Assembly (NCBI RefSeq): GCF_018873765.1
Contig: NC_057918.1
Coordinates: 35,751,871-35,815,870 of the forward strand
Length of the DNA: 64,000 nt
Source: Telopea speciosissima
Lineage: Eukaryota > Streptophyta > Magnoliopsida > Proteales > Proteaceae
Direction: 5' to 3'
Numbering within the stretch: position 1 is the stretch's first letter; every line of letters starts with the position of its first letter. Below, piece by piece: positions 17,505 to 58,204 of the stretch. The notes beneath the pieces were generated by a model, which was not told the DNA's origin, did not search any database, and saw only the letters and a program-made list of their open reading frames with translations. Both the position numbers and the translations under genes were made by a program.

Positions 17505-17525
17505 GTGCACGTACCAGATTTATCC

Positions 17526-18674: not shown

Positions 18675-18920
18675 CCCAGTCACTCATTTCAGAATCAGAA
18701 GTTGTTTAATTTAGACTTTTCTTTCACTTGTCTTGGATTTGTTGGAATTCCTTTCCTTTTGACTTTTCTCTATTTTTTTCTCTCTTTTTTTTTTATCAGT
18801 TAAATTTTAGAGGCTTTGGTGATGGTGGAAATGTATATTTTGGGTTGAAAGAGATGTAATTACCTCCAAGGGTGGGTTTGAACATATGGGAAGTTGGATT
18901 TTTAACTCGGTATATATATG

Positions 18921-18923
<3 letters not shown>

Positions 18924-18988
<65 letters not shown>
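18924..18988. repeat. (AT)n microsatellite
   Basis: About 32 uninterrupted AT dinucleotides lie within the internal region of the old LARD element. Confidence 0.95.
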
Positions 18989-18990
<2 letters not shown>

Positions 18991-19318
18991 CTCATTTCAT
19001 TTAAATTTGGATTTCATGGATTATTATGGATTATCTAGGATTATGATGGGTTATGATGGACATTCATGCGATGTCCATAACATACTCCCTTAGGGGTATA
19101 ACAATGCAACCTAATAGTTAACACCCAGACAGCATACACTTCAAGTCCTAAATTCCATAATTGTCTATTATTTTCTAGAGTTCTCAGTTGCACCATAATC
19201 AGTCTTCTTCCTATGTCTGCATACACTTATTTATGATCTTGAGACTTTTAAATTAGAACCTAATTGTTGGGAGTAAATCAAATGGTTACGCCAGATTGCG
19301 ATCGGTGCAGAGCATCAC

Positions 19319-19330
19319 ACTCTGATACCT
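19319..19330 (-). promoter_or_regulatory. Degenerate tRNA-iMet primer binding site
   Basis: ACTCTGATACCT is the complement of AGGTATCAGAGT. It differs from the canonical TGGTATCAGAGC at its two ends. It sits between the LTR and internal region of the reversed element, as expected. Confidence 0.65.
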
Positions 19331-35282: not shown

Positions 35283-35287
35283 GTATC
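35283..35287. repeat. Left target-site duplication GTATC
   Basis: GTATC immediately precedes LTR1 and is identical to the 5 bp after LTR4. A 5-bp duplication is normal for LTR retrotransposon integration. Confidence 0.85.
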
Positions 35288-35583
35288 TGTTATACCCGCA
35301 CCCCGAGAGTATAATTAATTATTAATTCTTCCCCGTGACGTGTAGTTATCACTGCCACATATGCTGGTGAGTTGTTCTCACTGGTGGTCAAACCCAGCTA
35401 TAAAATTATTGACCATAGTACGAGTTTGCCTGTGGAAACTAGTCAGGACCACGGAGGTTGCACCTTGACATGTCAGGGGTAAGTAGTTGACCGAATTTGT
35501 TGTGTGCTTACTGCCCTCTCAAAGCCCTCGGAGTGTGGTCCAAAGGCCCTGACCTCATGGTGGGAACCACCTTCCTACTCGCA

Positions 35584-35612
35584 TCGGAGGCAAGGTTACT
35601 GGCTGCCTCCGA
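35584..35612 (+). repeat. LTR hairpin H1 (TCGGAGGCA stem)
   Basis: TCGGAGGCA and TGCCTCCGA form a 9-bp perfect stem with an 11-nt loop, starting 296 bp into LTR1. It recurs in the other three LTRs. Confidence 0.7.
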
Positions 35613-36409
35613 CCATGCATCCAATGCTGCTGACAAGGACTCTTGTGGGTGAGACCCTGTGGCTAAGGTGCTATTGGTGTCCCCGCCATGTTTGACCCTA
35701 CCCAAATAGACCCTAGGTTACACTTATGAGGCCTTATCCAAATATGAGGCCAATAAATGTGATTTTTTTTATATGAGAGAGATGGGTAAGACTATTCCTT
35801 AGTCTTTCTTTTTTTTTTCTTTTCTAACCTAATCGTGAAAGGAGAGGAGAGCTTTGAAGAGAGGAGGCAGCAAGGAGGAGAAGAAGGAGAAGAAGGAGGA
35901 GAAGAAGGAGAAGGAAGGGAAGAAGAAGAAGGAAACGGCTGCTGGGTTTGGAGCTTTAAAGAGGGCACATCTTGTGTATCTCAGACCAGGTAAGCTAAGT
36001 GCCCTTTTCCCCCCCTTTTTTCTCTCTTTCCCCCTTGCTCGTTTGAGCTTGGGTGGTTCTTTGGTTGCAGCCCCAAGATGGGGATTTCTTTTTGGAAACC
36101 CAAAGGGTTAGCTCGAGCCATGTGTAGTTTCCCCTTGTAGGATGCTATCCCAATTTCATTACAATCCTATAAAGACCTCTATTTGACCTCTTGCTGAATC
36201 TATTTGATTCTAAAGCTTCAACCACCAAAGAAAACCCCAAATCTGGATTTTTGAGCTTTTGATCCTTTAAACCCCCTTAAATCTTTGGATGTTGGGTGTT
36301 TCTAAGACCCAAATAGACTCCAAGACACCCCTCCCTTGTCCCTTGAGGCTTAGAGAACCAAATGGGACGACCCTGGGCTTTTAAAGACCTTGAAATCACA
36401 CTTGGGTTG

Positions 36410-36535
36410 CATCGGAGGCAAGGCTGCGTGAGTCCGATGTTTGCCTCCGATGTGTCCCCGAGCTCGCAGGAAGGTCGGAGGCAAGGTCGGAGGCAAGCCT
36501 GCTGAGTCCGACGTTGCCTCCGATGCAGTTTTTAA
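36410..36535 (+). repeat. LTR hairpin cluster H2 (CGGAGGCAAG / TTGCCTCCG)
   Basis: CATCGGAGGCAA and TTGCCTCCGATG form a 12-bp stem around CGTGAGTCCGATG. Two further GTCGGAGGCAAG copies then face TTGCCTCCGATGC. The block recurs in LTR2-LTR4, where its length varies at CTG/CAG positions. Confidence 0.75.
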
Positions 36536-37867
36536 GGCTTATAACTTATGTAAACTGTGGGGTTTCTCTATGAGGCCTCCCCTACACTCTCTCACACTCT
36601 TATTCACTTCCATAGGCGCCAACATATGTGCAATGGAGTGATTTTGAGCAGGAATCGTTGCGCTTATACAAATTCCATTTGAAGTAATTGGTGAGTGGGT
36701 TTGGGTGACTGTTTGAGCTTGTTTACTATTGCTTATTCATGCATTTATGAATTATATTGTGACATTATCATTCAAGCATGATTGCATATTTGCATTTATT
36801 CTTATTCGATGATGATGATTTGGATGATATGGATTTGTGTTGGGTTACGGTCGGAAGTACGGCACCGGAACCCCGAATTACGTGGAATTATATATTGCAT
36901 CTCATTCTTGTCTGTATGCGCCGTGTTGTGCTGGTACCCGGGTGTTAGATGGAATGGGACGTTGACACACCCGGATGTACCTCTCAACACGATAGGATTC
37001 ATGTAGTATATCTGTGGTTAGGCTCAGTTCCCTATGCTATGACCCTTACCAACAGGGGTTTAGGTGTTGGGTAGCCAGAGCACCTGCTGTCTGTGGAGAG
37101 TTAGAGAGGCCAGGCCAGGGGTAGTAATGGTTATCGGGGTCTGCCTCTGGGTGGTGATGACTACGACCGGCGCGGGCTCCATAGTAATAATTGAGGTTAC
37201 ATTGTGGTGAGAATGGAAGGATCCACAATGTCTTCCCGAGTTATTGCAGTAGCATATACCCATTGACTTAGCATTGTGTGTTAGGTGGTAAATGAATTAA
37301 TAATAGCATGCACCATGGACTATTTGTGATTGTGTGATTGTGCATCCCCTTTTCTCTCTCACTAGCTCGGTGGAGCTAACCCCCGTGTACACATTCTTTT
37401 TAGATTTTGATGCAGATGATTACTGTGGAGCCAGAGACCGTGACTGAGGATCATGGCGATGGTTGCCCATGATGATTGTGCCTACGGGCTGTATTGATAC
37501 TTGGGACTTGTTCCCTTCTTTTGTTTTTTTTTGGGGCCACGTGCCTTGTATAAATATTTATTATTATACTTGTTTTGGGGTAGTTATGCTATGGTCATTC
37601 GGGATATCCATCCAAACTATTTATGTATCACTTAGCCGTGTGAACATGAGGTAACTACTGTAAACGCTTCCGCTTATTTTATGATCGTTGGAAATGTAAT
37701 ATTCCTTTATCTTTCGCACTCTGATATTATTGTATTGTAATATTGGTTTATGACTGTGAGTTGGCCACTGCATCGAGATCCTGGCGGTGAGGTGGGATGA
37801 CGCGTGTCACCCCAATCATACCCTGATATTGTATTTTATCCCTTGTCGGGATAGGGGTGTGACAACA

Positions 37868-37879
37868 TGGTATCAGAGC
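37868..37879 (+). promoter_or_regulatory. Primer binding site 1
   Basis: TGGTATCAGAGC is complementary to the 3' end of plant initiator tRNA-Met. It lies 3 nt after LTR1. Confidence 0.9.
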
Positions 37880-38584
37880 AATGATGCTCTGCACCGACCA
37901 CAGTCTTGCGGACTCTTGATTTACTCTCCACAATTAGGTTCTAAATTAAAAATCTTCAAGAACATAAATGATTGTGTGCAGACATAGGAGAAGACTGATT
38001 GTGGTGAAACAAGGACTTAGAAGATAATAGGTAACATGGAACTTAGGACTTGAACCATAGGCTGTTAAGCTACAACAATGTAATTGCTTGGTTGAGTCTT
38101 AAGTAGGTCATAGATGGGAAATTATATGCTATAATTCATAAACACTAATGAATCAATCATAACTAAGCACAATTATCAGCAATGATTTAAACAAGAGAGA
38201 ATTAAGCAAATACATCGAGATACATATAAGATTAATTACAAATATCTAATTGTTCCAAATTTTCTTGGGAGGCAATCATATCCTTCCTATTTCAACATTC
38301 ATGATTTCATCTATTCCAATAAAAACATATGACCCCATCCTGCTCAATCAAAAGATACCAATCTAAACACTATAATTGTTTCAGATTCTCTGTTTGGGCA
38401 TAACTGTGCCTTTCCCAACTCAGAATGCAAGACCCCATTTGTTCCAATTCGAAGCTTTTGATTCTGGTTATCTCAGATTAAATATACAAGTCTACCATTT
38501 CTAAAAGTTCCTAGTTGTTCATCCTAAGACAAGAACTAGAAGAACTGATCCGAGATAACTTCAATTTGTTGAGAGAAAGCTGGG

Positions 38585-39219
38585 CTAGTCATTTGCACCA
38601 CCGCCACCACCGCGACCAAGAAAGGTATTGATGTCATCTACCCCTCTCTCGATACCCTCTAGGCGCCGAGTCTGGTCGAAGAGTTGCTTCGTGACCTCAT
38701 CGAAGCATCCACCACTCGCAGGTTCAGTCGCCTGATGGTCGTCAGAATGTCAATACCTCCCACCTGATGAAGGTATAGGGATTCCTTCTAGGTGAACAGT
38801 AGGTCTTCTCTTCCCCAATGGAGACATTGATAATGCCGGCCAACTGTGCTGCAGTGAAGGCTATAGGAACCCCCTTTACATACGAAACAACCCGATAGTT
38901 TTGTGTGCCCGGGTTCTCGGTGTTCAGATTTGCATAGAAATATCCGATGAGTTTTGGGTAATATGGTTCAGGGAGGTTGAGAATGTCGGTCCACCCCAAT
39001 GCCTCGAATCTCTGTTCCACATTGTATGCTTTGAGATCATCCAACACTACATTTTGCCCCTTCCACTATATTTTTGAAGCGGAAGTAGTCTTGATAAAGC
39101 TCTTGGTCCTCTATCTTTTGAAACCAAAGTGGATCTAGGACAGTTGGTGCAACTTGTTCCACGCATGCACGCCGTGTTCTTGGAGCCATTGATTGTTTTA
39201 ACCTGCAGCCAAAAGCCAA
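38585..39219 (-). pseudogene. Antisense transposon-protein gene, internal region 1
   Basis: Minus strand, so opposite to the host element. The frame reads MAPRTRRACVEQVAP (ATG at 39189) to FRFKNIVEG, then a frameshift near 39045, then LKAYNVEQRFEALGWTDILN, YYPKLIGYFYANL, VSYVKGVPIAFTAAQLAGII and YCSPRRNPYTF. After a second break near 38740 the C-terminus reads RRLEGIERGVDDINTFLGRG and ends GAND-stop. It is homologous to the gene at 17526-18674 (SFVKGVPIAF; LERIEKKLNDINTFL), but the ~150 residues between the YYxPxxNP and coiled-coil parts are deleted. An intron acceptor (GGCTGCAG) lies just before the first codons. Confidence 0.75.
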
Positions 39220-40299
39220 GTAGATAGCAAATTAATACCTTGAATGCTAAGGCCTAAGTAGATGATCAATGTAAGGTAATGGGGTTTAAAACCTAGCCTT
39301 TGATTCTTTTCCCAAGGCAATCAAGTTACAGCAGGATTCTTAGGCTAGAAATTTCTGATTTTTTTATCAAATTGTGATCTAAGAAGTTGGGAAAAAAGGG
39401 AATGCATGGCCACTATATGAATGCAATCATACATGATAGAGGTTAATGGCCAAATTATGCCTAGAAAGTAATATTTTATGCAAAACAGTGGGTTCAAGCA
39501 AGAAATGGGTTTATTCAATCATGGAGCATGCCTTGAACTTCAAAGAAATTTTTTTTAGATTTTGTGGTTGGAAGTTTGAATCTTGGGAAACAAGTAAATA
39601 TGATTTGTGATAACTCAGAAAATGTAAGCTAAGCCCTATCTAGTAAGACCGAATCAAATATGGCAAAAGAGAAGAGGAAAGATTCTAAGGATTTTATCAA
39701 CAATCATGTATACAAGAAAATATGTTTGAAGATAAGACATTGTGATAATTTTCTATGAGATTTTATGGCATGTAAAAGAACTAGATTTGAACTTGGAGAG
39801 TTTTCCCAAAATATTGTGAATTGAGGACTTTACCACAACCAAAACCTGAACATAATCCTAGTAAAATTCAACTAGACATGACAAACATAGCAACAATCTC
39901 TAAAATGTTTGCAAAGACTTGAAAATTTATAAAAGATGCAATAATCAAACGAGGATCCAACAACTTAGTGCCATCGATCAAATAGGGCTTGATTTACATC
40001 TAAAAACCCTAGTTCCGACCAATCGATTTTGGCATGGACTTGGTGTACATGGCCATGGGATTACAAGCAAAATCAAGACATGATCACAACTTGAGATGAT
40101 TCATCCCAAATCCAAGAAAGAGAAAGTAGGAATGAGAAGAAAGTCATATCATGAACAAGTAAGAGTTGAACCTTGAGGCTTAAGATTACAAGAAAACCAC
40201 CTAAGGGGAGCTTGAACGAAAGTCCCTGTAGAGCTTTTTCTCCCTGCGGTTATGTCCTTTTCTTTGGAGCCAAAAAATGCGTTTTAAAACTCGTGGCTC
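39220..40299. other. Non-coding internal region, part 1
   Basis: No gag, pol or other coding similarity on either strand. The same sequence recurs in internal regions 2 and 3. It would include the upstream region of the antisense gene. Confidence 0.5.
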
Positions 40300-40580
40300 T
40301 GTTTTGTTAAAATTCTACGAACAAACGAACGAACGGATCCACTTGTTGTGAATCCGCTCCGCACAAAACTCGAAATTATCATTTTAAAACTGTGCAGATC
40401 AACGAACGGATCCACACTCATGCATCCATTCATAGATCCGTTTGACTTCAACTCTCTCTGCCTTTGAGACTTCTGAGACCGGACGAATGAACGGATTTGC
40501 ATTCCACATCCGCCCGTTAATCCGCTCTACCTATTTTCACGGAGGAGTCACGAACGCACCCGGAATGCTGACGTCGCTTG
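40300..40580. repeat. GAACGGATCCAC / GGATCCGTT stem cluster in internal region 1
   Basis: CGAACGGATCCAC and GTGAATCCGCTC, CAACGAACGGATCCAC and ATAGATCCGTTTG, then GAACGGATTT and AATCCGCTC. These resemble the stems found in the LTR of the old reversed element (20638-20975), here moved into the internal region. Copies recur at about 47.1-47.35 kb and 53.85-54.1 kb. Confidence 0.6.
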
Positions 40581-42096
40581 TGAGTCCACCCGATTTCTTT
40601 TAAGATTTTGAGCCTATTTTGGAGACCTTTTGACCACACTTATATGTGATGATTATGTGCCTATACCCTAGATCGGACACCCCGTTGTGTGACCCATTGG
40701 TGGGAACCACCTAAGTCTAGTCAATACCTCGAATTGAAAGAGGTTAGGACTTGTACCCGACTGGACCAGCTAATAAAAAGTAGCAGGCATTGGTAACCTT
40801 TGTGACTCCTCTCTTACATAAAGGAAGAAGAGTTACCTTTGAGGATGAAGATCCTTAGACCCTATGAATGTAAGGACTCAAACCTTATGGATAGGGAAAC
40901 CTAAATCTATGCGGGTAGAGACCCTTAAGGGGGTGCGTAGAATCTAAACTTGTGGGTAGGTACTAGGAAAGGAAAGTAATAGGCTGGTTTGGGCTGTTTA
41001 TTTGAGTAAGCCATGAAGGTCACGTGTATTTGGAAGTCACTCATAACACCTCAAGCTAGTGATGACTCTATTTGGACTTTACTTGGTCCATCCAAACCTT
41101 GTTTAGACTCATAGAGGAAGTCCTACACCGTGATTCGACTTTCCAAAGAAAGGACTTAGCGAACCGCACGAGAACTTCTTGTTCTTGTGGATTGACCTAG
41201 ATGACAGATATGTCCATAGGGATTTGAATGTAATTATTGAATCTATGCCTACATATTGGTGTGATAAATATATATAGATATCCCTTAGAACCTTGGACTT
41301 GTGTGACGAGTGATTCTCTGGTACTACAAGTATGACTTACCTCGACCTTGCTGTGAAACTAGCTGGAGCCCTGACCTTGGTTGACCAAACCTTAGGGTAA
41401 TGAATAATGAATTTAATGACCGGATAGGTTAAATTATGGAGACTGCTTGAAGAGTTGACTTGGACAAAAGCTAGTAAAGGTTGTTGGTTCTCGAAAGAGG
41501 ACTGATGTGGACTCTTTCCTGTGGGATAACTGTGTTATAGGTTTAAAGGTTGTGAAAGCTAAAACTGAAGGATGTAACAAAACCTTCTCCAACGACAGAT
41601 ATGAATGGGGTAATGGATCACCAAATGCGTTCCCTCCGTACGGGAGTGAACAATAGGAGATTCCATCAATATTCCAAATCATTCTAAAGTTGGGTTAGGT
41701 AATGAGACAACCAGATGTGAAAGCCTTCAGAATGTGAACCCTATGTTGGGTCATGGACAGGTTAAATCCTGTAACCCAAGAATGACCAGAGTACTGAAGG
41801 CTAGAGTGGTATCACCCGATCTGGAAGATCTAGGGAACCTTTGTTCCTTGAGACTTAACTTAGTAGTTGGAACCCTGTTTTCCTAGGGTTATTGTGAACC
41901 ACACCCCGGTGGTAATGTGACCCTGTAAGGAAAAGAGAATTGTGGAACCTGACTTGCTGCGACATGTAGGCACTGCCTGATCTTGACCCGACCTTTGACT
42001 TAGTTTAAGATGTGGGTGACTTGGGATGTTGTTATCCAACAGCCCTTATCACTTGAGACCCTAGCTGCCTCAAATTTCGGGGACGAAATTTCTTGT
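40581..42096. other. Non-coding internal region, part 2
   Basis: No coding similarity. It contains a stretch of regularly phrased short motifs (CCTTATGGATAGGG, ATCCTTAGACCC) without clear periodicity. It leads into the polypurine tract through CGGGGACGAAATTTCTTG. Confidence 0.45.
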
Positions 42097-42109
42097 AAGG
42101 TGGGGAGAA
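42097..42109 (+). promoter_or_regulatory. Polypurine tract 1
   Basis: AAGGTGGGGAGAA directly abuts LTR2. It is the expected plus-strand primer. Confidence 0.85.
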
Positions 42110-44657
42110 TGTTATACCCGCACCCCAGGAGTATAATTAATTATTAATTCTTCCCCGTGGCGTGTAGTTATCACTGCCACGTATGCCGGTGAGTTGTTCT
42201 CACTGGTGGTCAAACCCAGCTATATTGACCATAGTACGAGGTTGCCTGTGGAAACTAGTCGGGACCACGGAGGTTGCACCTTGACGTGTCAGGGGTAAGT
42301 AGTTGACCAAATTTTGTTGTGTGCTTACTGCCCTCTCAAAGCCCTCGAAGTGTGGTCCAAAGGCCCTGACCTCTTATGGTGGGAACCACCTTCCTACTCG
42401 CATCGGAGGCAAGGTTACTGGCTGCCTCCGACCCTACATCCAATGCTGCTAACAAGGACCCTTGTGGGTGAGACCCTGTGGCTAAGGTGCTATTGGTGCC
42501 CTGCCATGTTTGACCCTACCCAAATAGACCCTAGGTTACACTTATGAGGCCTTATCCAAATAGGCCAATAAATGTGATTTCTATATGAGAGAGAGGGGTA
42601 AGACTATTCCTTAGTCTTTCTTTTTTTCTTTCTCTTTCCTAACCTAATCGTGAAAGGAGAGGAGAGCTTTGAAGAGAGGAGGCGGCAAGGAGGAGAAGAA
42701 GGAGAAGGAAGGGAAGAAGAAGAAGGAAATGGCTGCTGGGTTTGGAGCTTTAAAGAGGGTACATCGTGTGTACCTCAAACCAGGTAAGCCAAGTGCCCTT
42801 TTCCCCCATTTTTCTCTCTTCCCCCTTGCTCGTTTGAGCTTGGGTGGGTCGTTGGTTGCAGCCCCAAGATGGGGATTTCTTTTTGGAAACCCAAAGGGTT
42901 AGCTCGAGCCATGTGTAGTTTCCCCTTGTAGGATGCTATCCCATTTCATTACAATCCTATAAAGACCTCTATTTGACCTCTTGCTGAATCTATTTGATTC
43001 TAAAGCTTCAACCACCAAAGAAAACCCCAAATCTGGATTTTTGAGCTTTTGATCCTTTAAACCCCCTTAAATCTTTGAATGTTGGGTGTTTCTAAGACCC
43101 AAATAGACTCCAAGACACCCCTCCCTTGTCCCTTGAGGCTTAGAGAACCAAATGGGACGACCCTGGGCTTTTAAAGACCTTGAAATCACACTTGGGTTGC
43201 ATCGGAGGCAAGACTGCGTGAGTCCGATGTTTGCCTCCGATGTGTCCTGAGCCTGCAGGGAAGGTCGGAGGCAAGGTCGGAGGCAAGCCTGCTGAGTCCG
43301 ACGTTGCCTCCGATGCAGTTTTTAAGGCTTATAACTTATGTAAACTGTGGGGTTTCTCTATGAGGCCTCCCCTACACTCTCTCACACTCTTATTCACTTC
43401 CATAGGCGCCAACATATGTGCAATGGAGTGATTTTGAGCAGGAATCGTTGCGCTTATACAAATTCCATTTGAAGTAATTGGTGAGTGGGTTTGGGTGACT
43501 GTTTGAGCTTGTTTACTATTGCTTATTCATGCATTTATGAATTATATTGTGACATTATCATTCAAGCATGATTGCATATTTGCATTTATTCTTATTCGAT
43601 GATGATGATTTGGATGATATGGATTTGTGTTGGGTTACGGTGCCGGGAAGTACTGGCACCGGAACCCCCGAATTACGTGGAATTATATATTGCATCTCAT
43701 TCTTGTCTGTATGCGCCGTGTTGTGCTGGTACCCGGGTGTTAGATGGAATGGGACGTTGACACACCCGGATGTACCTCTCAACACGATAGGATTCATGTA
43801 GTATATCTGTGGTTAGGCTCAGTTCCCTATGCTATGACCCTTACCAACAGGGGTTTAGGTGTTGGGTAGCCAGAGCACCTGCTGTCTGTGGAGAGTTAGA
43901 GAGGCCAGGCCAGGGGTAGTAATGGTTATCGGGTCCGCCTCGGGTGGTGATGACTACGACCGGCGCGGCTCCATAGTAATAATTGAGGTTACATTGTGGT
44001 GAGAATGGAAGGATCCACAATGTCTTCCCGAGTTATTGCAGTAGCATATACCCATTGACTTAGCATTGTGTGTTAGGTGGTAAATGAATTAATAATAGCA
44101 TGCACCATGGACTATTTGTGATTGTGTGATTGTGCATCCCCTTTTCTCTCTCACTAGCTCGGTGGAGCTAACCCCCGTGTACACATTCTTTTTAGATTTT
44201 GATGCAGATGATTACTGTGGAGCCAGAGACCGTGACTGAGGATCATGGCGATGGTTGCCCATGATGATTGTGCCTACGGGCTGTATTGATACTTGGGACT
44301 TGTTCCCTTCTTTTTTTTTTTTTTTGGGGCCACGTGCCTTGTATAAATATTTATTATTATACTTGTTTTGGGGTAGTTATGCTATGGTCATTCGGGATAT
44401 CCATCCAAACTATTTATGTATCACTTAGCCGTGTGAACATGAGGTAACTACTGTAAACGCTTCCGCTTATTTTATGATCGTTGGAAATGTAATATTCCTT
44501 TATCTTTCGCACTCTGATATTATTGTATTGTAATATTGGTTTATGACTGTGAGTTGGCCACTGCATCGAGATCCTGGCGGTGAGGTGGGATGACGCGTGT
44601 CACCCCAATCATACCCTGATATTGTATTTTATCCCTTGTCGGGATAGGGGTGTGACA
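42110..44657 (+). mobile_element. LTR2 of the array
   Basis: 2,548 bp. It shares with LTR3, but not with LTR1 or LTR4, variants such as GGGTACATCGTGTGTACCTC near 42755. It acts as 3' LTR for internal region 1 and 5' LTR for internal region 2. Confidence 0.9.
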
Positions 44658-44660
44658 ACA

Positions 44661-44672
44661 TGGTATCAGAGC
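44661..44672 (+). promoter_or_regulatory. Primer binding site 2
   Basis: TGGTATCAGAGC, 3 nt after LTR2. Confidence 0.9.
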
Positions 44673-45377
44673 AATGATGCTCTGCACCGACCACAGTCTT
44701 GCGGACTCTTGATTTACTCTCCACAATTAGGTTCTAAATTAAAAATCTTCAAGAACATAAATGATTGTGTGCAGACATAGGAGAAGACTGATTGTGGTGA
44801 AACAAGGACTTAGAAGATAATAGGTAACATGGAACTTAGGACTTGAACCATAGGCTGTTAAGCTACAACAATGTAATTGCTTGGTTGAGTCTTAAGTAGG
44901 TCATAGATGGGAAATTATATGCTATAATTCATAAACACTAATGAATCAATCATAACTAAGCACAATTATCAGCAATGATTTAAACAAGAGAGAATTAAGC
45001 AAATACATCGAGATACATATAAGATTAATTACAAATATCTAATTGTTCCAAATTTTCTTGGGAGGCAATCATATCCTTCCTATTTCAACATTCATGATTT
45101 CATCTATTCCAATAAAAACATATGACCCCATCCTGCTCAATCAAAAGATACCAATCTGAACACTATAATTGTTTCAGATTCTCTGTTTGGGCATAACTGT
45201 GCCTTTCCCAACTCAGAATGCAAGACCCCATTTGTTCCAATTCGAAGCTTTTGATTCTGGTTATCTCAGATTAAATATACAAGTCTACCATTTCTAAAAG
45301 TTCCTAGTTGTTCATCCTAAGACAAGAACTAGAAGAACTGATCCGAGATAACTTCAATTTGTTGAGAGAAAGCTGGG

Positions 45378-46012
45378 CTAGTCATTTGCACCACCGCCAC
45401 CACCGCGACCAAGAAAGGTATTGATGTCATCTACCCCTCTCTCGATACCCTCTAGGCGCCGAGTCTGGTCGAAGAGTTGCTTCGTGATCTCATCGAAGCA
45501 TCCACCACTCGCAGGTTCAGTCGCCTGATGGTCGTCAGAATGTCAATACCTCCCACCTGATGAAGGTATAGGGATTCCTTCTAGGTGAACAGTAGGTCTT
45601 CTCTTCCCCAATGGAGACATTGATAATGCCGGCCAACTGTGCTGCAGTGAAGGCTATAGGAACCCCCTTTACATACGAAACAACCCGATAGTTTTGTGTG
45701 CCCGGGTTCTCGGTGTTCAGATTTGCATAGAAATGCCTGATGAGTTTTGGGTAATATGGTTCAGGGAGGTTGAGAATGTCAGTCCACCCCAATGCCTCGA
45801 ATCTCTGTTCCACATTGTATGCTTTGAGATCATCCAACACTACATTTCACCCCTTCCACTATATTTTTGAAGCGGAAGTAGTCTTGATAAAGCTCTTGGT
45901 CCTCTATCTTTTGAAACCAAAGTGGATCTAGGACAGTTGGTGCAACTTGTTCCACGCATGCACGCCGTGTTCTTGGAGCCATTGATTGTTTTAACCTGCA
46001 GCCAAAAGCCAA
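45378..46012 (-). pseudogene. Antisense transposon-protein gene, internal region 2
   Basis: Same structure as in region 1, with the same two breaks, so these predate amplification. Differences include VEGVKCSVG for VEGAKCSVG and KLIRHFYANL for KLIGYFYANL. Confidence 0.75.
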
Positions 46013-48886
46013 GTAGATAGCAAATTAATACCTTGAATGCTAAGGCCTAAGTAGATGATCAATGTAAGGTAATGGGGTTTAAAACCTAGCCTTTGATTCT
46101 TTTCCCAAGGCAATCAAGTTACAGCAGGATTCTTAGGCTAGAAATTTCTGATTTTTTTATCAAATTGTGATCTAAGAAGTTGGGAAAAAAGGGAATGCAT
46201 GGCCACTATATGAATGCAATCATACATGATAGAGGTTAATGGCCAAATTATGCCTAGAAAGTAATATTTTATGCAAAACAGTGGGTTCAAGCAAGAAATG
46301 GGTTTATTCAATCATGGAGCATGCCTTGAACTTCAAAGAAATTTTTTTAGATTTTGTGGTTGGAAGTTTGAATCTTGGGAAACAAGTAAATATGATTTGT
46401 GATAACTCGTAGAAAATGTAAGCTAAGCCCTATCTAGTAAGACCGAATCAAATATGGCAAAAGAGAAGAGGAAAGATTCTAAGGATTTTATCAACAATCA
46501 TGTATACAAGAAAATATGTTTGAAGATAAGACATTGTGATAATTTTCTATGAGATTTTATGGCATGTAAAAGAACTAGATTTGAACTTGGAGAGTTTTCC
46601 CAAAATATTGTGAATTGAGGACTTTACCACAACCAAAACCTGAACATAATCCTAGTAAAATTCAACTAGACATGACAAACATAGCAACAATCTCTAAAAT
46701 GTTTGCAAAGACTTGAAAATTTATAAAAGATGCAATAATCAAACGAGGATCCAACAACTTAGTGCCATCGATCAAATAGGGCTTGATTTACATCTAAAAA
46801 CCCTAGTTCCGACCAATCGATTTTGGCATGGACTTGGTGTACATGGCCATGGGATTACAAGCAAAATCAAGACATGATCACAACTTGAGATGATTCATCC
46901 CAAATCCAAGAAAGAGAAAGTAGGAATGAGAAGAAAGTCATATCATGAACAAGTAAGAGTTGAACCTTGAGGCTTAAGATTACAAGAAAACCACCTAAGG
47001 GGAGCTTGAACGAAAGTCCCCTGAGAGCTTTTTCTCCCTGCGGTTATGTCCTTTTCTTTGGAGCCAAAAATGCGTTTTAAAACTCGTGGCTCTGTTTTGT
47101 TAAAATTCTACGAACAAACGAACGAACGGATCCACTTGTTGTGAATCCGCTCCGCACAAAACTCGAAATTATCATTTTAAAACTGTGCGGATCAACGAAC
47201 GGATCCACACTCATGCATCCATTCATAGATCCGTTTGACTTCAACTCTCTCTGCCTTTGAGACTTCTGAGACCGGACGAATGAACGGATTTGCATTCCAC
47301 ATCCGCCCGTTAATCCGCTCTACCTATTTTCACGGAGGAGCCACGAACGCACCCGGAATGCTGACGTCGCTTGTGAGTCCACCCGATTTCTTTTAAGATT
47401 TTGAGCCTATTTTGGAGACCTTTTGACCACACTTATATGTGATGATTATGTGCCTATACCCTAGATCGGACACCCCGTTGTGTGACCCATTGGTGGGAAC
47501 CACCTAAGTCTAGTCAATACCTCGAATTGAAAGAGGTTAGGACTTGTACCCGACTGGACCAGCTAATAAAAAGTAGCAGGCATTGGTAACCTTTGTGACT
47601 CCTCTCTTACATAAAGGAAGAAGAGTTACCTTTGAGGATGAAGATCCTTAGACCCTATGAATGTAAGGACTCAAACCTTATGGATAGGGAAACCTAAATC
47701 TATGCGGGTAGAGACCCTTAAGGGGGTGCGTAGAATCTAAACCTGTGGGTAGGTACTAGGAAAGGAAAGTAATAAGCTGGTTTGGGCTGTTTATTTGAGT
47801 AAGCCATGAAGGTCACGTGTATTTGGAAGTCACTCATAACACCTCAAGCTAGTGATGACTCTATTTGGACTTTACTTGGTCCATCCAAACCTTGTTTAGA
47901 CTCATAGAGGAAGTCCTACACCGTGATTCGACTTTCCAAAGAAAGGACTTAGCGAACCGTACCTGAGAACTTCTTGTTCTTGTGGATTGACCTAGATGAC
48001 AGATATGTCCATAGGGATTTGAATGTAATTATTGAATCTATGCCTACATATTGGTGTGATAAATATATATAGATATCCCTTAGAACCTTGGACTTGTGTG
48101 ACGAGTGATTCTCTGGTACTACAAGTATGACTTACCTCGACCTTGCTGTGAAACTAGCTGGAGCCCTGACCTTGGTTGACCAAACCTTAGGGTAATGAAT
48201 AATGAATTTAATGACCGGATAGGTTAAATTATGGAGACTGCTTGAAGAGTTGACTTGGACAAAAGCTAGTAAAGGTTGTTGGTTCTCGAAAGAGGACTGA
48301 TGTGGACTCTTTCCTGTGGGATAACTGTGTTATAGGTTTAAAGGTTGTGAAAGCTAAAACTGAAGGATGTAACAAAACCTTCTCCAACGACAGATATGAA
48401 TGGGGTAATGGATCACCAAATGCGTTCCCTCCGTACTGGGAGTGAACAATAGGAGATTCCATCAATATTCCAAATCATTCTAAAGTTGGGTTAGGTAATG
48501 AGACAACCAGATGTGAAAGCCTTCAGAATGTGAACCCTATGTTGGGTCATGGACAGGTTAAATCCTGTAACCCAAGAATGACCAGAGTACTGAAGGCTAG
48601 AGTGGTATCACCCGATCTGGAAGATCTAGGGAACCTTTGTTCCTTGAGACTTAACTTAGTAGTTGGAACCCTGTTTTCCTAGGGTTATTGTGAACCACAC
48701 CCCGGTGGTAATGTGACCTGTAAGGAAAAGAGAATTGTGGAACCCGACTTGCTGCGACATGTAGGCACGCCTCGATATTGACCCGACCTTTGACTTAGTT
48801 TAAGATGTGGGTGACTTGGGATGTTGTTATCCAACACCCTTATCACTTGAGACCCTAGCCCAAATTTCGGGGACGAAATTTCTTGT

Positions 48887-48899
48887 AAGGTGGGGAGAA
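48887..48899 (+). promoter_or_regulatory. Polypurine tract 2
   Basis: AAGGTGGGGAGAA, immediately before LTR3. Confidence 0.85.
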
Positions 48900-51426
48900 T
48901 GTTATACCCGCACCCCAGGAGTATAATTAATTATTAATTCTTCCCCGTGGCGTGTAGTTATCACTGCCACGTATGCCGGTGAGTTGTTCTCACTGGTGGT
49001 CAAACCCAGCTATATTGACCATAGTACGAGGTTGCCTGTGGAAACTAGTCGGGACCACGGAGGTTGCACCTTGACGTGTCAGGGGTAAGTAGTTGACCAA
49101 ATTTTGTTGTGTGCTTACTGCCCTCTCAAAGCCCTCGAAGTGTGGTCCAAAGGCCCTGACCTCTTATGGTGGGAACCACCTTCCTACTCGCATCGGAGGC
49201 AAGGTTACTGGCTGCCTCCGACCCTACATCCAATTCGCTAACAAGGACCCTTGTGGGTGAGACCCGTGGCTAAGGTGCTATTGGTGCCCCGCCATGTTTG
49301 ACCCTACCCAAATAGACCCTAGGTTACACTTATGAGGCCTTATCCAAATAGGCCAATAAATGTGATTTCTATATGAGAGAGAGGGGTAAGACTATTCCTT
49401 AGTCTTTCTTTTTTCTTTCTCTTTCCTAACCTAATCGTGAAAGGAGAGGAGAGCTTTGAAGAGAGGAGGCGGCAAGGAGGAGAAGAAGGAGAAGGAAGGG
49501 AAGAAGAAGAAGGAAATGGCTGCTGGGTTTGGAGCTTTAAAGAGGGTACATCGTGTGTACCTCAAACCAGGTAAGCCAAGTGCCCTTTTCCCCCATTTTT
49601 CTCTCTTCCCCCTTGCTCGTTTGAGCTTGGGTGGGTCGTTGGTTGCAGCCCCAAGATGGGGATTTCTTTTTGGAAACCCAAAGGGTTAGCTCGAGCCATG
49701 TGTAGTTTCCCCTTGTAGGATGCTATCCCATTTCATTACAATCCTATAAAGACCTCTATTTGACCTCTTGCTGAATCTATTTGATTCTAAAGCTTCAACC
49801 ACCAAAGAAAACCCCAAATCTGGATTTTTGAGCTTTTGATCCTTTAAACCCCCTTAAATCTTTGAATGTTGGGTGTTTCTAAGACCCAAATAGACTCCAA
49901 GACACCCCTCCCTTGTCCCTTGAGGCTTAGAGAACCAAATGGGACGACCCCGGGCTTTTAAAGACCTTGAAATCACACTTGGGTTGCATCGGAGGCAAGC
50001 TGCGTGAGTCCGATGTTTGCCTCCGATGTGTCCTGAGCTCAGCGAGGAAGGTCGGAGGCAAGGTCGAGGCAAGCCTGCGAGTCCGACGTTGCCTCCGTGC
50101 GTGTTTAAGGCTTATAACTTATGTAAACTGTGGGGTTTCTCTATGAGGCCTCCCCTACACTCTCTCACACTCTTATTCACTTCCATAGGCGCCAACATAT
50201 GTGCAATGGAGTGATTTTGAGCAGGAATCGTTGCGCTTATACAAATTCCATTTGAAGTAATTGGTGAGTGGGTTTGGGTGACTGTTTGAGCTTGTTTACT
50301 ATTGCTTATTCATGCATTTATGAATTATATTGTGACATTATCATTCAAGCCATGATTGCATATTTGCATTTATTCTTATTCGATGATGATGATTTGGATG
50401 ATATGGATTTGTGTTGGGTTACGGCGGAAGTACGCACGGAACCCCGAATTACGTGGAATTATATATTGCATCTCATTCTTGTCTGTATGCGCCGTGTTGT
50501 GCTGGTACCCGGGGTTAGATGGAATGGGACGTTGACACACCCGGATGTACCTCTCAACACGATAGGATTCATGTAGTATATCTGTGGTTAGGCTCGGTTC
50601 CCTATGCTATGACCCTTACCAACAGGGGTTTAGGTGTTGGGTAGCGAGCACACTGCTGTGGAGAGTTAGAGAGGCCAGGCCAGGGGTAGTAATGGTTATC
50701 GGGTGCCTCTGCGGGTGGTGATGACTACGACGCGCGGGCTCCATAGTAATAATTTGAGGTTACATTGTGGTGAGAATGGAAGGATCCACAATGTCTTCCC
50801 GAGTTATTGCAGTAGCATATACCCATTGACTTAGCATTGTGTGTTAGGTGGTAAATGAATTAATAATAGCATGCACCATGGACTATTTGTGATTGTGTGA
50901 TTGTGCATCCCCTTTTCTCTCTCACTAGCTCGGTGGAGCTAACCCCCGTGTACACATTCTTTTTAGATTTTGATGCAGATGATTACTGTGGAGCCAGAGA
51001 CCGTGACTGAGGATCATGGCGATGGTTGCCCATGATGATTGTGCCTACGGGCTGTATTGATACTTGGGACTTGTTCCCTTCTTTTGTTTTTTTTTGGGGC
51101 CACGTGCCTTGTATAAATATTTATTATTATACTTGTTTTGGGGTAGTTATGCTATGGTCATTCGGGATATCCATCCAAACTATTTATGTATCACTTAGCC
51201 GTGTGAACATGAGGTAACTCATCGAACGCTTCCGCTTATTTTATGATCGTTGGAAATGTAATATTCCTTTATCTTTCGCACTCTGATATTATTGTATTGT
51301 AATATTGGTTTATGACTGTGAGTTGGCCACTGCATCGAGATCCTGGCGGTGAGGTGGGATGACGCGTGTCACCCCAATCATACCCTGATATTGTATTTTA
51401 TCCCTTGTCGGGATAGGGGTGTGACA
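48900..51426 (+). mobile_element. LTR3 of the array
   Basis: 2,527 bp, the shortest LTR. It is nearly identical to LTR2 except for many 1-4 bp gaps, most at CTG, CAG or CCG trinucleotides (for example near 49234, 50040-50102, 50645 and 50705). Confidence 0.9.
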
Positions 51427-51429
51427 ACA

Positions 51430-51441
51430 TGGTATCAGAGC
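51430..51441 (+). promoter_or_regulatory. Primer binding site 3
   Basis: TGGTATCAGAGC, 3 nt after LTR3. Confidence 0.9.
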
Positions 51442-52146
51442 AATGATGCTCTGCACCGACCACAGTCTTGCGGACTCTTGATTTACTCTCCACAATTAGG
51501 TTCTAAATTAAAAATCTTCAAGAACATAAATGATTGTGTGCAGACATAGGAGAAGACTGATTGTGGTGAAACAAGGACTTAGAAGATAATAGGTAACATG
51601 GAACTTAGGACTTGAACCATAGGCTGTTAAGCTACAACAATGTAATTGCTTGGTTGAGTCTTAAGTAGGTCATAGATGGACAGTTATATGCTATAATTCA
51701 TAAACACTAATGAATCAATCATAACTAAGCACAATTATCAGCAATGATTTAAACAAGAGAGAATTAAGCAAATACATCGAGATACATATAAGATTAATTA
51801 CAAATATCTAATTGTTCCAAATCTTCTTGGGAGGCAATCATATCCTTCCTATTTCAACATTCATGATTTCATCCATTCCAACAAAAACATATGACCCCAT
51901 CCTGCTCAATCAAAAGATACCAATCTAAACACTATAATTGTTTCAGATTCTCTGTTTGGGCATAACTGTGCCTTTCCCAACTCAGAATGCAAGACCCCAT
52001 TTGTTCCAATTCGAAGCTTTTGATTCTGGTTATCTCAGATTAAATATACAAGTCTACCATTTCTAAAAGTTCCTAGTTGTTCATCCTAAGACAAGAACTA
52101 GAAGAACTGATCCGGGATAACTTCAATTTGTTGAGAGAAAGCTGGG

Positions 52147-52774
52147 CTAGTCATTTGCACCACCGCCACCACCGCGACCAAGAAAGGTGTTGATGTCATC
52201 TACCCCTCTCTCGATACCCTCTAGGCGCCGAGTCTGGTCGAAGAGTTGCTTCGTGACCTCATCGAAGCATCCACCACTCGCAGGTTCAGTCGCCTGATGG
52301 TCGTCAGAATGTCAATACCTCCCACCTGATGAAGGTATAGGGATTCCTTCTAGGTGAACAGTAGGTCTTCTCTTCCCCAATGGAGACATTGATAATGCCG
52401 CCAACTGTCCTGCGTGAAGGCTATAGGAACCCCTTTACATACGAAACAACCCGATAGTTTTGTGTGCCCGGGTTCTCGGTGTTGATTTGCATAGAAATGC
52501 CGATGAGTTTTGGGTAATATGGTTCAGGAGGTTGAGAATGTCAGTCCACCCCAATGCCTCGAATCTCTGTTCCACATTGTATGCTTTGAGATCATCCAAC
52601 ACTACATTTCACCCCTTCCACTATATTTTTGAAGCGGAAGTAGTCTTGATAAAGCTCTTGGTCCTCTATCTTTTGGAACCAAAGTGGATCTAGGACAGTT
52701 GGTGCAACTTGTTCCACGCATGCACGCCGTGTTCTTGGAGCCATTGATTGTTTTAACCTGCAGCCAAAAGCCAA
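52147..52774 (-). pseudogene. Antisense transposon-protein gene, internal region 3
   Basis: The N-terminal 60-codon frame (52774-52592) equals that of region 2. The following part carries extra small gaps near 52400, 52483 and 52530 that break the ~100-codon frame still open in regions 1 and 2. The C-terminal coiled coil and GAND ending persist. Confidence 0.7.
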
Positions 52775-55650
52775 GTAGATAGCAAATTAATACCTTGAAT
52801 GCTAAGGCCTAAGTAGATGATCAATGTAAGGTAATGGGGTTTAAAACCTAGCCTTTGATTCTTTTCCCAAGGCAATCAAGTTACACAGGATTCTTAGGCT
52901 AGAAATTTCTGATTTTTTATCAAATTGTGATCTAAGAAGTTGGAAAAAGGGAATGCATGGCCACTATATGAATGCAATCATACATGATAGAGGTTAATGG
53001 CCAAATTATGCCTAGAAAGTAATATTTTATGCAAAACAGTGGGTTCAAGCAAGAAATGGGTTTATTCAATCATGGAGCATGCCTTGAACTTCAAAGAAAT
53101 TTTTTTTAGATTTTGTGGTTGGAAGTTTGAATCTTGGGAAACAAGTAAATATGATTTGTGATAACTCGAGAAAATATAAGCTAAGCCCTATCTAGTAAGA
53201 CCGAATCAAATATGGCAAAAGAGAAGAGGAAAGATTCTAAGGATTTTATCAACAATCATGTATACAAGAAAATATGTTTGAAGATAAGACATTGTGATAA
53301 TTTTCTATGAGATTTTATGGCATGTAAAAGAACTAGATTTGAACTTGGAGAGTTTTCCCAAAATATTGTGAATTGAGGACTTTACCACAACCAAAACCTG
53401 AACATAATCCTAGTAAAATTCAACTAGACATGACAAACATAGCAACAATCTCTAAAATGTTTGCAAAGACTTGAAAATTTATAAAAGATGCAATAATCAA
53501 ACGAGGATCCAACAACTTAGTGCCATCGATCAAATAGGGCTTGATTTACATCTAAAAACCCTAGTTCCGACCAATCGATTTTGGCATGGACTTGGTGTAC
53601 ATGGCCATGGGATTACAAGCAAAATCAAGACATGATCACAACTTGAGATGATTCATCCCAAATCCAAGAAAGAGAAAGTAGGAATGAGAAGAAAGTCATA
53701 TCATGAACAAGTAAGAGTTGAACCTTGAGGCTTAAGATTACAAGAAAACCACCTAAGGGGAGCTTGAACGAAAGTCCCTGTAGAGCTTTTTCTCCCTGCG
53801 GTTATGTCCTTTTCTTTGGAGCCAAAAATGCGTTTTAAAACTCGTGGCTCTGTTTTGTTAAAATTCTACGAACAAACGAACGAACGGATCCACTTGTTGT
53901 GAATCCGCTCCGCACAAAACTCGAAATTATCATTTTAAAACTGTGCAGATCAACGAACGGATCCACACTCATGCATCCATTCATAGATCCGTTTGACTTC
54001 AACTCTCTCTGCCTTTGAGACTTCTGAGACCGGACGAATGAACGGATTTGCATTCCACATCCGCCCGTTAATCCGCTCTACCTATTTTCACGGAGGAGCC
54101 ATGAACGCACCCGGAGTGCTGACGTCGCTTGTGAGTCCACCCGATTTCTTTTAAGATTTTGAGCCTATTTTGGAGACCTTTTGACCACACTTATATGTGA
54201 TGATTATGTGCCTATACCCTAGATCGGACACCCCGTTGTGTGACCCATTGGTGGGAACCACCTAAGTCTAGTCAATACCTCAAATTGAAAGAGGTTAGGA
54301 CTTGTACCCGACTGGACCAGCTAATAAAAAGTAGCAGGCATTGGTAACCTTTGTGACTCCTCTCTTACATAAAGGAAGAAGAGTTACCTTTGAGGATGAA
54401 GATCCTTAGACCCTATGAATGTAAGGACTCAAACCTTATGGATAGGGAAACCTAAATCTATGCGGGTAGAGACCCTTAAGGGGGTGCGTAGAATCTAAAC
54501 CTGTGGGTAGGTACTAGGAAAGGAAAGTAATAAGGCTGGTTTGGGCTGTTTATTTGAGTAAGCCATGAAGGTCACGTGTATTTGGAAGTCACTCATAACA
54601 CCTCAAGCTAGTGATGACTCTATTTGGACTTTACTTGGTCCATCCAAACCTTGTTTAGACTCATAGAGGAAGTCCTACACCGTGATTCGACTTTCCAAAG
54701 AAAGGACTTAGCGAACCGCACTCGAGAACTTCTTGTTCTTGTGGATTGACCTAGATGACAGATATGTCCATAGGGATTTGAATGTAATTATTGAATCTAT
54801 GCCTACATATTGGTGTGATAAATATATATAGATATCCCTTAGAACCTTGGACTTGTGTGACTAGAGTGATTCTCTGGTACTACAAGTATGACTTACCTCG
54901 ACCTTGCTGTGAAACTAGTTGGAGCCCTGACCTTGGTTGACCAAACCTTAGGGTAATGAATAATGAATTTAATGACCGGATAGGTTAAATTATGGAGACC
55001 GCTTGAAGAGTTGACTTGGACAAAAGCTAGTAAAGGTTGTTGGTTCTCGAAAGAGGACTGATGTGGACTCTTTCCTGTGGGATAACGTGTTATAGGTTTA
55101 AAGGTTGTGAAAGCTAAAACGAAGGATGTAACAAAACCTTCTCCAACGACAGATATGAATGGGGTAATGGATCACCAAATGCGTTCCCTCCGATCTGGAG
55201 TGAACAATAGGAGATTCCATCAATATTCCAAATCATTCTAAAGTTGGGTTAGGTAATGAGACAACCAGATGTGAAAGCCTTCAGAATGTGAACCCTATGT
55301 TGGGTCATGGACAGGTTAAATCCTGTAACCCAAGAATGACCAGAGTACTGAAGGCTAGAGTGGTATCACCCGATCTGGAAGATCTAGGGAACCTTTGTTC
55401 CTTGAGACTTAACTTAGTAGTTGGAACCCTGTTTTCCTAGGGTTATTGTGAACCACACCCCGGTGGTAATGTGACCCTGTAAGGAAAAGAGAATTGTGGA
55501 ACCTGACTTGCTGCGACATGTAGGCACTGCCTGATCTTGACCCGACCTTTGACTTAGTTTAAGATGTGGGTGACTTGGGATGTTGTTATCCAACAGCCCT
55601 TATCACTTGAGACCCTAGCTGCCTCAAATTTCGGGGACGAAATTTCTTGT

Positions 55651-55663
55651 AAGGTGGGGAGAA
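55651..55663 (+). promoter_or_regulatory. Polypurine tract 3
   Basis: AAGGTGGGGAGAA, immediately before LTR4. Confidence 0.85.
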
Positions 55664-58199
55664 TGTTATACCCGCACCCCAGGAGTATAATTAATTATTA
55701 ATTCTTCCCCGTGATGGCGTGTAGTTATCACGCCACGTATGCCGGTGAGTTGTTCTCACCGGTGGTCAAACCCAAACTATATTGACCATAGTACGAGGTT
55801 GCCTGTGGAAACTAGTCGGGACCACGGAGGTTGCACCTTGACGTGTCAGGGGTAAGTAGTTGACCAAATTTTGTTGTGTGCTTACTGCCCTCTCAAAGCC
55901 CTCGAAGTGTGGTCCAAAGGCCCTGACCTCTTATGGTGGGAACCACCTTCCTACTCGCATCGGAGGCAAGGTTACTGGCTGCCTCCGACCCTGCATCCAA
56001 TGCTGCTAACAAGGACCCTTGTGGGTGAGACCCTGTGGCTAAGGTGCTATTGGTGCCCTGCCATGTTTGACCCTACCCAAATAGACCCTAGGTTACACTT
56101 ATGAGGCCTTATCCAAATAGGCCAATAAAAGTGATTTTCTATATGAGAGAGAGGGGTAAGACTATTCCTTAGTCTTTCTTTTTCTTTCTCTTTCCTAACC
56201 TAATCGTGAAAGGAGAGGAGAGCTTTGAAGAGAGGAGGCGGCAAGGAGGAGAAGAAGGAGAAGGAAGGGAAGAAGAAGAAGGAAATGGCTGCTGGGTTTG
56301 GAGCTTTAAAGAGGACACATCTTGTGTATCTCAGACCAGGTAAGCCAAGTGCCCCTTTCCCCCCTTTTTCTCTCTTTCCCCCTTGCTCGTTTGAGCTTGG
56401 GTGGTTCGTTGGTTGCAGCCCCAAGATGGGGATTTCTTTTTGGAAACCCAAAGGGTTAGCTCGAGCCATGTGTAGTTTCCCCTTGTAGGATGCTATCCCA
56501 TTTTCATTACAATCCTATAAAGACCTCTATTTGACCTCTTGCTGAATCTATTTGATTCTAAAGCTTCAACCACCAAAGAAAACCCCAAATCTGGATTTTT
56601 GAGCTTTTGATCCTTTAAACCCCCTTAAATCTTTGGATGTTGGGTGTTTCTAAGACCCAAATAGACTCCAAGACACCCCTCCCTTGTCCCTTGAGGCTTA
56701 GAGAACCAAATGGGACGACCCTGGGCTTTTAAAGACCTTGAAATCACACTTGGGTTGCATCGGAGGCAAGACTGCGTGAGTCCGATGTTTGCCTCCGATG
56801 TGTCCCGAGCCTGCAGGAAGGTCGGAGGCAAGGCTCGAGGCAAGCCGCCGAGTCCGACGTTGCCTCCGATGCGCTTTTAAGGCTTATAACTTATGTAAAC
56901 TGTGGGGTTTCTCTATGAGGCCTCCCCTACACTCTCTCACACTCTTATTCACTTCCATAGGCGCCAACATATGTGCAATGGAGTGATTTTGAGCAGGAAT
57001 CGTTGCGCTTATACAAATTCCATTTGAAGTAATTGGTGAGTGGGTTTGGGTGACTGTTTGAGCTTGTTTACTATTGCTTATTCATGCATTTATGAATTAT
57101 ATTGTGACATTATCATTCAAGCATGATTGCATATTTGCATTTATTCTTATTCGATGATGATGATTTGGATGATATGGATTTGTGTTGGGTTACGGTCTGG
57201 GAAGTACCGCACCGGAACCCCGGATTACGTGGAATTATATATTGCATCTCATTCTTGTCTGTATGCGCCGTGTTGTGTGGTACCGGGTGTTAGATGGAAT
57301 GGGACGTTGACACACCCGGATGTACCTCTCAACACGATAGGATTCATGTAGTATATCCGTGGTTAGGCTCGGTCCCTATGCTATGACCCTTACCAACAGG
57401 GGTTTAGGTGTTGGGCAGCCGAGCACCCGCTGTGGAGAGTTAGAGAGGCCAGGCCAGGGGTAGTAATGGTTATCGGGTCTCGCCTCGGGTGGTGATGACT
57501 ACGATCGGCGCGGCTCCATAGTAATAATTGAGGTTACATTGTGGTGAGAATGGAAGGATCCACAATGTCTTCCCGAGTTATTGCGTAGCATATACCCATT
57601 GACTTAGCATTGTGTGTTAGGTGGTAAATGAATTAATAATAGCATGCACCATGGACTATTTGTGATTGTGTGATTGTGCATCCCCTTTTCTCTCTCACTA
57701 GCTCGGTGGAGCTAACCCCGTGTACACATTCTTTTTAGATTTTGATGCGGATGATTACGTGGGAGCCGAGACCGTGATCGAGGATCATGGCGATGGTTGC
57801 CCATGATGATTGTGCCTACGGGCTGTATTGATACTTGGGACTTGTTCCCTTCTTTTATTTTTTATTGGGGGCCACGTGCCTTGTGTAAATATTTATTGTT
57901 ATACTTGTTTTTGGGTAGTTATGCTATGGTCATTCGGGATATCCATCCAAACTATTTATGTATCACTTAGCCGTGTGAACATGAGGTAACTACTGTAAAC
58001 GCTTCCGCTTATTTTATGATCGTTGGAATTGTAATATTCCTTTGTCTTTCGCACTCTGATATTATTGTATTGTAATATTGGTGTATGACTGTGAGTTGGC
58101 CACTGCATTGAGATCCTGGCGGTGAGGTGGGATGACGCGTGCCACCCCAATCATACCCTGATATTGTATTTTATCCCTTGTCGGGATAGGGGTGTGACA
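55664..58199 (+). mobile_element. LTR4 of the array
   Basis: 2,536 bp, ending GGGGTGTGACA. It has private substitutions in its 3' part (GGTGTATGACTG for GGTTTATGACTG; CACTGCATTGAG for CACTGCATCGAG). Near 56313 it matches LTR1 (ACATCTTGTGTATCTCAGAC) and not LTR2/3. This suits an original outer LTR. Confidence 0.88.
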
Positions 58200-58204
58200 G
58201 TATC
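58200..58204. repeat. Right target-site duplication GTATC
   Basis: GTATC follows LTR4 and matches 35283-35287. Joining the flanks restores CGGTATCAATATCGG, a typical unit of the dispersed repeat into which the element inserted. Confidence 0.85.

What the first reader, a model, noticed from the sequence alone, without database searches (positions are those of the whole stretch)
35288..58199. Four-LTR, three-body tandem LARD array with a single target duplication
The order LTR-body-LTR-body-LTR-body-LTR is seen directly, each body with its own perfect primer site and polypurine tract, and one GTATC duplication bounds the whole. Neighbouring units share LTRs, so this is not three separate insertions. 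LTR-LTR unequal recombination after one insertion explains it best; insertion of a pre-formed concatemer is the alternative. Arrays of more than two bodies that stay free of flanking rearrangement are uncommon, and here the element lacks all its own proteins.
Basis: partly seen in the sequence, partly recalled or inferred. Interest (0 to 1): 0.8.

Follow-up and report, generated by a model that had tools for sequence, protein, structure and literature searches.

The report
Tandem plant retrotransposon grown by crossover
A plant jumping element without replication genes of its own seems to have inserted once and later been stretched into three copies in a row, and the shared end repeats look like hybrids that record how: by misaligned crossing-over long after the insertion.

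Summary
The structure is as described: LTR-body-LTR-body-LTR-body-LTR at 35288-58199, three identical primer sites and polypurine tracts, one GTATC duplication around the whole. Such tandem elements are a known kind, common in plants; the main survey could not tell post-insertion crossover from insertion of a ready-made concatemer (PMC11899658). Here the sequence can. Both inner LTRs are hybrids: left part like the last LTR, right part like the first. Of 18 strictly filtered informative sites 17 fit one breakpoint of this polarity (34 of 100,000 shuffles as good). The outer LTRs differ at 15 of 1299 strict sites where LTR2 differs from its donors at 0; bodies differ at 5-14 of 3972. So one insertion probably stayed single for most of its life, then gained bodies by two unequal crossovers. 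Joining two elements predicts the opposite polarity. A false assembly loop would mimic the pattern and is not excluded without reads. Many small differences look like base-calling artefacts: 11 of 25 non-homopolymer one-base indels hit CAG/CTG. A patch private to both inner LTRs at the crossover interval is unexplained.

The parts
35283..35287 (.). left copy of target duplication GTATC
35288..37864 (+). LTR1 (old 5' LTR)
37865..42109 (+). body 1, primer site at 37868-37879, polypurine tract 42097-42109
42110..44657 (+). LTR2, hybrid: left like LTR4, right like LTR1
42730..43671 (+). interval of the first crossover as seen in LTR2 (alignment columns 658-1605, looser filter)
42760..43078 (+). 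patch (columns 688-1010) shared by LTR2 and LTR3 against LTR1 and LTR4
44658..48899 (+). body 2, primer site at 44661-44672, polypurine tract 48887-48899
48900..51426 (+). LTR3, hybrid as LTR2; same patch at 49547-49865
51427..55663 (+). body 3, primer site at 51430-51441, polypurine tract 55651-55663
55664..58199 (+). LTR4 (old 3' LTR)
58200..58204 (.). right copy of target duplication GTATC
38588..39231 (-). broken antisense frame in body 1; PF20167-like stretch in 38742-39065

Best explanation
A non-autonomous, LARD-like LTR retrotransposon inserted once (one GTATC duplication). Its two LTRs drifted apart while it stood as a single element. Then an unequal crossover paired the 3' LTR of one chromatid or homologue with the 5' LTR of the other. 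That made a two-body array whose middle LTR starts as the old 3' LTR and ends as the old 5' LTR. A second, later unequal exchange, out of register by one unit and in or near the first shared LTR, copied body 1 together with the hybrid LTR and gave three bodies. Shown: structure, single duplication, hybrid polarity, outer LTRs more diverged than bodies, and bodies 1 and 2 as the closest pair. Inferred: that exchange rather than repeated conversion did it, the order of the two events, and that the assembly reflects the genome. The patch private to LTR2 and LTR3 is guessed to be a conversion tract at the first crossover; its donor is unknown.
For: Single duplication around the whole, none inside. 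Polarity: at strictly filtered sites where LTR1 and LTR4 differ and LTR2=LTR3 match one of them, the order is 444444441411111111; the best breakpoint leaves 1 misfit of 18, the opposite polarity 9 of 18, and 34 of 100,000 label shuffles do as well. Looser filter: 3 misfits of 33, 0 of 20,000 shuffles. Over left plus right parts LTR1-LTR4 differ at 15 of 1299 strict sites while LTR2 differs from its matching donor at 0 of 1299 (Fisher p 6e-5); LTR1-LTR4 against body 1-body 3 (13 of 3972) gives p 0.0013. LTR1-LTR4 is the most divergent LTR pair raw, looser and strict. Strict differences of bodies: 1-2 5, 1-3 13, 2-3 14 of 3972; LTR2-LTR3 2 of 2120 looser and 0 strict, so the second step looks younger than the first.
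Against: Five strict sites (columns 694, 701, 706, 779, 1010; eight in the looser set) are shared by LTR2 and LTR3 against both outer LTRs, which one clean crossover does not make. LTR columns 1020-1560 hardly differ in any pair (0 of 454 strict), so divergence is uneven. In the looser count bodies 1-2 differ at 14, 1-3 at 18 and 2-3 at 24 of 4010, so the order of the two steps rests on the strict filter; three bodies without an outgroup cannot be rooted. The filters were chosen after seeing the alignment. LTR versus body assumes equal rates. No reads or other individuals were available.
Confidence: 0.72

Rival explanations
1. Assembly artefact: the real locus has one or two bodies, and the assembler looped from the 3' LTR back into the 5' LTR or merged two haplotypes.
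For: A loop gives exactly the hybrid polarity seen. Copies carry an excess of CAG/CTG one-base indels, 11 of 25 outside homopolymers against 3.7% background, a sign of uneven consensus quality.
Against: LTR2 and LTR3 share sites found in neither outer LTR, and each of the three bodies has isolated differences of its own (strict: 2, 3 and 11 private), which a plain loop over one haplotype cannot make. Two merged haplotypes could make part of this.
Confidence: 0.17
2. A concatemer formed during retrotransposition (read-through RNA, template switching or joined cDNAs) was inserted as such.
For: One duplication around the whole; the inner-LTR patch with LTR1=LTR4 against LTR2=LTR3 is what a concatemer with identical outer LTRs would show. 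Template switching is proposed for complex insertions in Triticeae (PMC1950507, abstract).
Against: Outer LTRs, which this scheme makes identical at insertion, are the most diverged pair; bodies are less diverged than outer LTRs; joined cDNAs give the opposite polarity, which misfits 9 of 18 sites.
Confidence: 0.06
3. The clusters are separate: the left of LTR1 and the right of LTR4 were each overwritten by conversion from other copies, and the array formed in some other way.
For: Divergence along the LTR is patchy, with a near-invariant stretch at columns 1020-1560 and a third-source patch beside it.
Against: Needs two unlinked events that by chance give the polarity one crossover predicts.
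Confidence: 0.04
4. Two or more independent neighbouring insertions fused by recombination.
For: Complex elements sharing an LTR were long thought to arise so (PMC1950507, abstract).
Against: Matching GTATC at both ends, none inside; polarity opposite to that expected.
Confidence: 0.01

Closest known systems
Tandem LTR-retrotransposons of rice, Arabidopsis, almond and cotton (IDENTAM survey, PMC11899658)
   Same: Alternating LTRs and bodies sharing inner LTRs, a 5-bp duplication around the whole where intact, high identity.
   Different: Its two worked examples have two bodies, the 28 hand-checked rice arrays all encode retrotransposon domains, and it leaves open whether crossover or complex insertion made them; here three bodies, no gag-pol found, and inner LTRs with a readable polarity.
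Cassandra TRIM long tandem arrays (PMC7215508)
   Same: Non-autonomous element without gag-pol in head-to-tail arrays with shared LTRs, at least 12 repeated LTRs (abstract).
   Different: Short 5S-bearing LTRs and a very small internal domain; here LTRs of 2.5 kb and bodies of 4.2 kb.
BARE1 structures of three LTRs and two bodies in barley (passage in PMC7215508)
   Same: Shared-LTR structure put down to LTR recombination; at least 4600 stated there.
   Different: Autonomous copia element; the original paper was not read.
LARD elements such as Sukkula (named in passages of PMC7215508)
   Same: A sizeable body that encodes no proteins of the gag-pol kind.

Membership tests
tandem LTR-retrotransposon | alternating LTRs and bodies, starting and ending with an LTR, neighbours sharing LTRs | tested here: met
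tandem LTR-retrotransposon | one target site duplication around the whole, none inside | tested here: met
tandem LTR-retrotransposon | spanning long reads confirm the unit number | not testable with these tools
   no reads held; own-genome search unreachable
LARD | LTRs with primer site and polypurine tract | tested here: met
LARD | body of some kb without gag-pol domains | tested here: met
   14 body-1 frames against Pfam, no gag-pol family; frames under 60 aa left out save one; bodies 2 and 3 not scanned
LARD | dispersed, structurally uniform family moved by a partner element | not tested
   host genome could not be searched; one diverged relative lies in the window
derivative of a Tekay-like chromovirus | LTR ends, primer site and 3' end like Tekay/Del | not tested
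   resemblance recalled from memory only

The most novel reading that the evidence does not exclude
The polarity of the inner LTRs, together with the ratio of outer-LTR to body divergence, can decide between post-insertion crossover and concatemer insertion at a single locus. This array shows stepwise growth by two crossovers late in the life of an old single insertion, perhaps with a conversion patch from a third copy at the first junction. Applied to the arrays already catalogued, the same test would settle how plant tandem elements form.
Probability: 0.6. Interest if true: 0.5.

Novelty: new member of a known kind. Interest (0 to 1): 0.38.

Why it matters
Tandem LTR elements are common and polymorphic in plants, and the survey that showed it left open whether they are inserted ready-made or grow in place (PMC11899658). 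A locus whose inner LTRs carry the signature of crossover makes that question testable from sequence alone. The CAG/CTG indel excess also warns against dating such arrays from raw LTR identity.

Tried and rejected
Independent insertions were rejected by the single duplication and by polarity. Raw LTR identity (97.1-98.8%) was rejected as a clock, since CAG/CTG indels are in excess and an old relative in the window agrees, by eye, with the longer forms at several of these places (alignment). No calendar dates are given. The paper on plant base-callers (PMC9749173, passages read) says methylation differences likely lower accuracy but holds no 'CHG', 'CAG' or 'CTG', so the CHG-methylation reading is inference; a search for nanopore CHG errors gave 0 papers. 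Searches for hybrid or chimeric inner LTRs gave 0 papers, 1 paper on yeast circles seen in the listing only and 28 papers of which 10 were listed, seen as titles and starts of abstracts; none of those listed is seen there to use polarity. The main text of PMC11899658 holds no 'hybrid', 'crossover' or 'mosaic'. Other copies of the element in its genome could not be sought. The joined flanks match nothing else in the window.

Full report
Structure. A repeat search and an LTR-against-window comparison give four LTRs and three bodies, head to tail on the + strand. Limits are LTR1 35288-37864, LTR2 42110-44657, LTR3 48900-51426, LTR4 55664-58199, and bodies 37865-42109, 44658-48899, 51427-55663. 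Each body opens with the same primer-site region and closes with AAGGTGGGGAGAA before the next LTR. GTATC flanks the whole, and the inner LTRs have no duplication of their own.

Coding. All 13 stop-to-stop frames of 60 aa or more listed for body 1 plus one of 53 aa were scanned against Pfam; none matched gag-pol families. One antisense frame (38742-39065) matched PF20167 Transposase_32 with E 1.9e-9 and 38.1 bits, under the family's cut-off of 45. The region is broken by stops and frame changes in all three bodies. An old relative on the minus strand near 20346-17500 has a 75.6% LTR piece, an 81% piece next to the primer site, and a homologue of the antisense frame at 36% amino-acid identity, E 2.6e-17; the overlapping sense frame also matches there, far more weakly (26%, E 1.4e-5). 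The relative's frame 17790-18248 matches PF20167 too, at 29 bits. Antisense extra frames are known in plant LTR elements (PMC7264820, passages read; there mostly between pol and the 3' LTR, with pfam04195 in Retand).

Error signature. The copies show 51 columns with one-base indels, 25 of them outside homopolymers; 11 of these 25 add or remove the middle base of CAG or CTG, against a background of 3.7%, p 5e-10 (51 is my count of its list). The old relative agrees by eye with the longer forms at several of these places. This looks like base-calling error at methylated CHG sites; that reading is inference. I therefore counted only substitutions away from gaps and not of the CWG/CSG type (43 of 99 LTR substitution columns kept, 28 of 41 in bodies), and then only isolated ones (23 LTR and 16 body sites).

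Hybrid inner LTRs., looser filter: in columns 0-680 LTR2 and LTR3 each differ from LTR4 at 1 of 500 and from LTR1 at 13 of 500; in columns 1560-2600 they differ from LTR1 at 3 and 2 of 842 and from LTR4 at 14 and 16 of 842; LTR1-LTR4 differ at 12 of 500 and 17 of 842. One breakpoint leaves 3 misfits of 33 sites; 0 of 20,000 shuffles do as well., strict filter: 1 misfit of 18, 34 of 100,000 shuffles; opposite polarity 9 of 18. Over left plus right parts LTR1-LTR4 is 15 of 1299 and LTR2 against its donors 0 of 1299, p 6e-5. Raw counts by 200 columns show the same shift with more noise, and one raw block (1800-2000) runs against it for LTR2, 7 differences to LTR1 and 5 to LTR4, in the stretch rich in CAG/CTG errors.

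Why polarity decides. In an unequal crossover between the 3' LTR of one copy and the 5' LTR of the other, the new middle LTR begins as the 3' LTR and ends as the 5' LTR. Joining two different elements or cDNAs gives the reverse. A reverse-transcribed read-through RNA gives outer LTRs identical at insertion (recalled scheme). Observed: the first pattern, with the outer LTRs the most divergent pair. The argument is mine; the searches listed no paper seen to use it.

Order of events. Strict body differences are 5 (1-2), 13 (1-3) and 14 (2-3) of 3972; LTR2-LTR3 differ at 2 of 2120 looser and 0 strict sites. So body 3 seems to have split first, and body 1 with the hybrid LTR to have been copied later. 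That fits a second crossover between LTR1 and the hybrid LTR, to the right of the patch, or just inside the body. Looser body counts are 14, 18 and 24 of 4010, with the same order but less contrast. Scaled to outer LTR divergence, the first split lies at about 28-31% and the second at about 11% of the element's age on strict counts, and at 21-28% and 16% on looser ones (arithmetic; equal rates assumed). Rough.

What does not fit. Five strict sites in columns 694-1010 are shared by LTR2 and LTR3 against both outer LTRs; the stretch lies inside the crossover interval. A conversion tract from another copy at the first crossover is my guess. Columns 1020-1560 are nearly invariant in all pairs. Neither is explained.

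Caveats. A false assembly loop would give the same polarity. The shared patch and three mutually different bodies speak against a simple loop, not against merged haplotypes. The window's own genome could not be searched.

Known or new. PMC11899658 (text parts 1-4 of 6 read) reports tandem LTR elements as common and polymorphic in plants, with gypsy elements overrepresented in the rice pangenome and Arabidopsis but not significantly in almond and cotton, and leaves the mechanism open. PMC7215508 (abstract and passages) reports Cassandra arrays and mentions at least 4600 BARE1 structures. So this is a new member of a known kind, of interest because its mechanism can be read.

Noticed in passing
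38588-39231 (-) and matching places in bodies 2 and 3: Broken antisense frame with a PF20167 Transposase_32-like stretch (38.1 bits, below the cut-off of 45), near the 5' side of the body.
   Followed up: partly
17500-20346 (-): Old diverged relative of the element: LTR piece, primer-site side and a homologous antisense frame, with an open frame of 152 aa at 17790-18248.
   Followed up: partly
LTR columns 1020-1560, e.g. 36298-36836 in LTR1: No strict differences between any LTRs (0 of 454), against 15 of 1299 in the left and right parts for LTR1-LTR4.
   Followed up: no
35288-58199: One-base indels outside homopolymers concentrate in CAG/CTG (11 of 25), unevenly among copies; possible footprint of CHG methylation in base-calling.
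   Followed up: partly
9446-9603 and 4140-4277: Exact or nearly exact tandem duplications of 79 and 69 bp outside the array.
   Followed up: no
12359-12913 (-): Open frame of 185 aa that reads like the end of a copia polyprotein (recalled); no Pfam match at E up to 1.
   Followed up: partly
58353-58979 (-): Open frame of 209 aa right beside the array, perhaps an RNase H-like piece of a non-LTR element (recalled); no Pfam match at E up to 1.
   Followed up: partly
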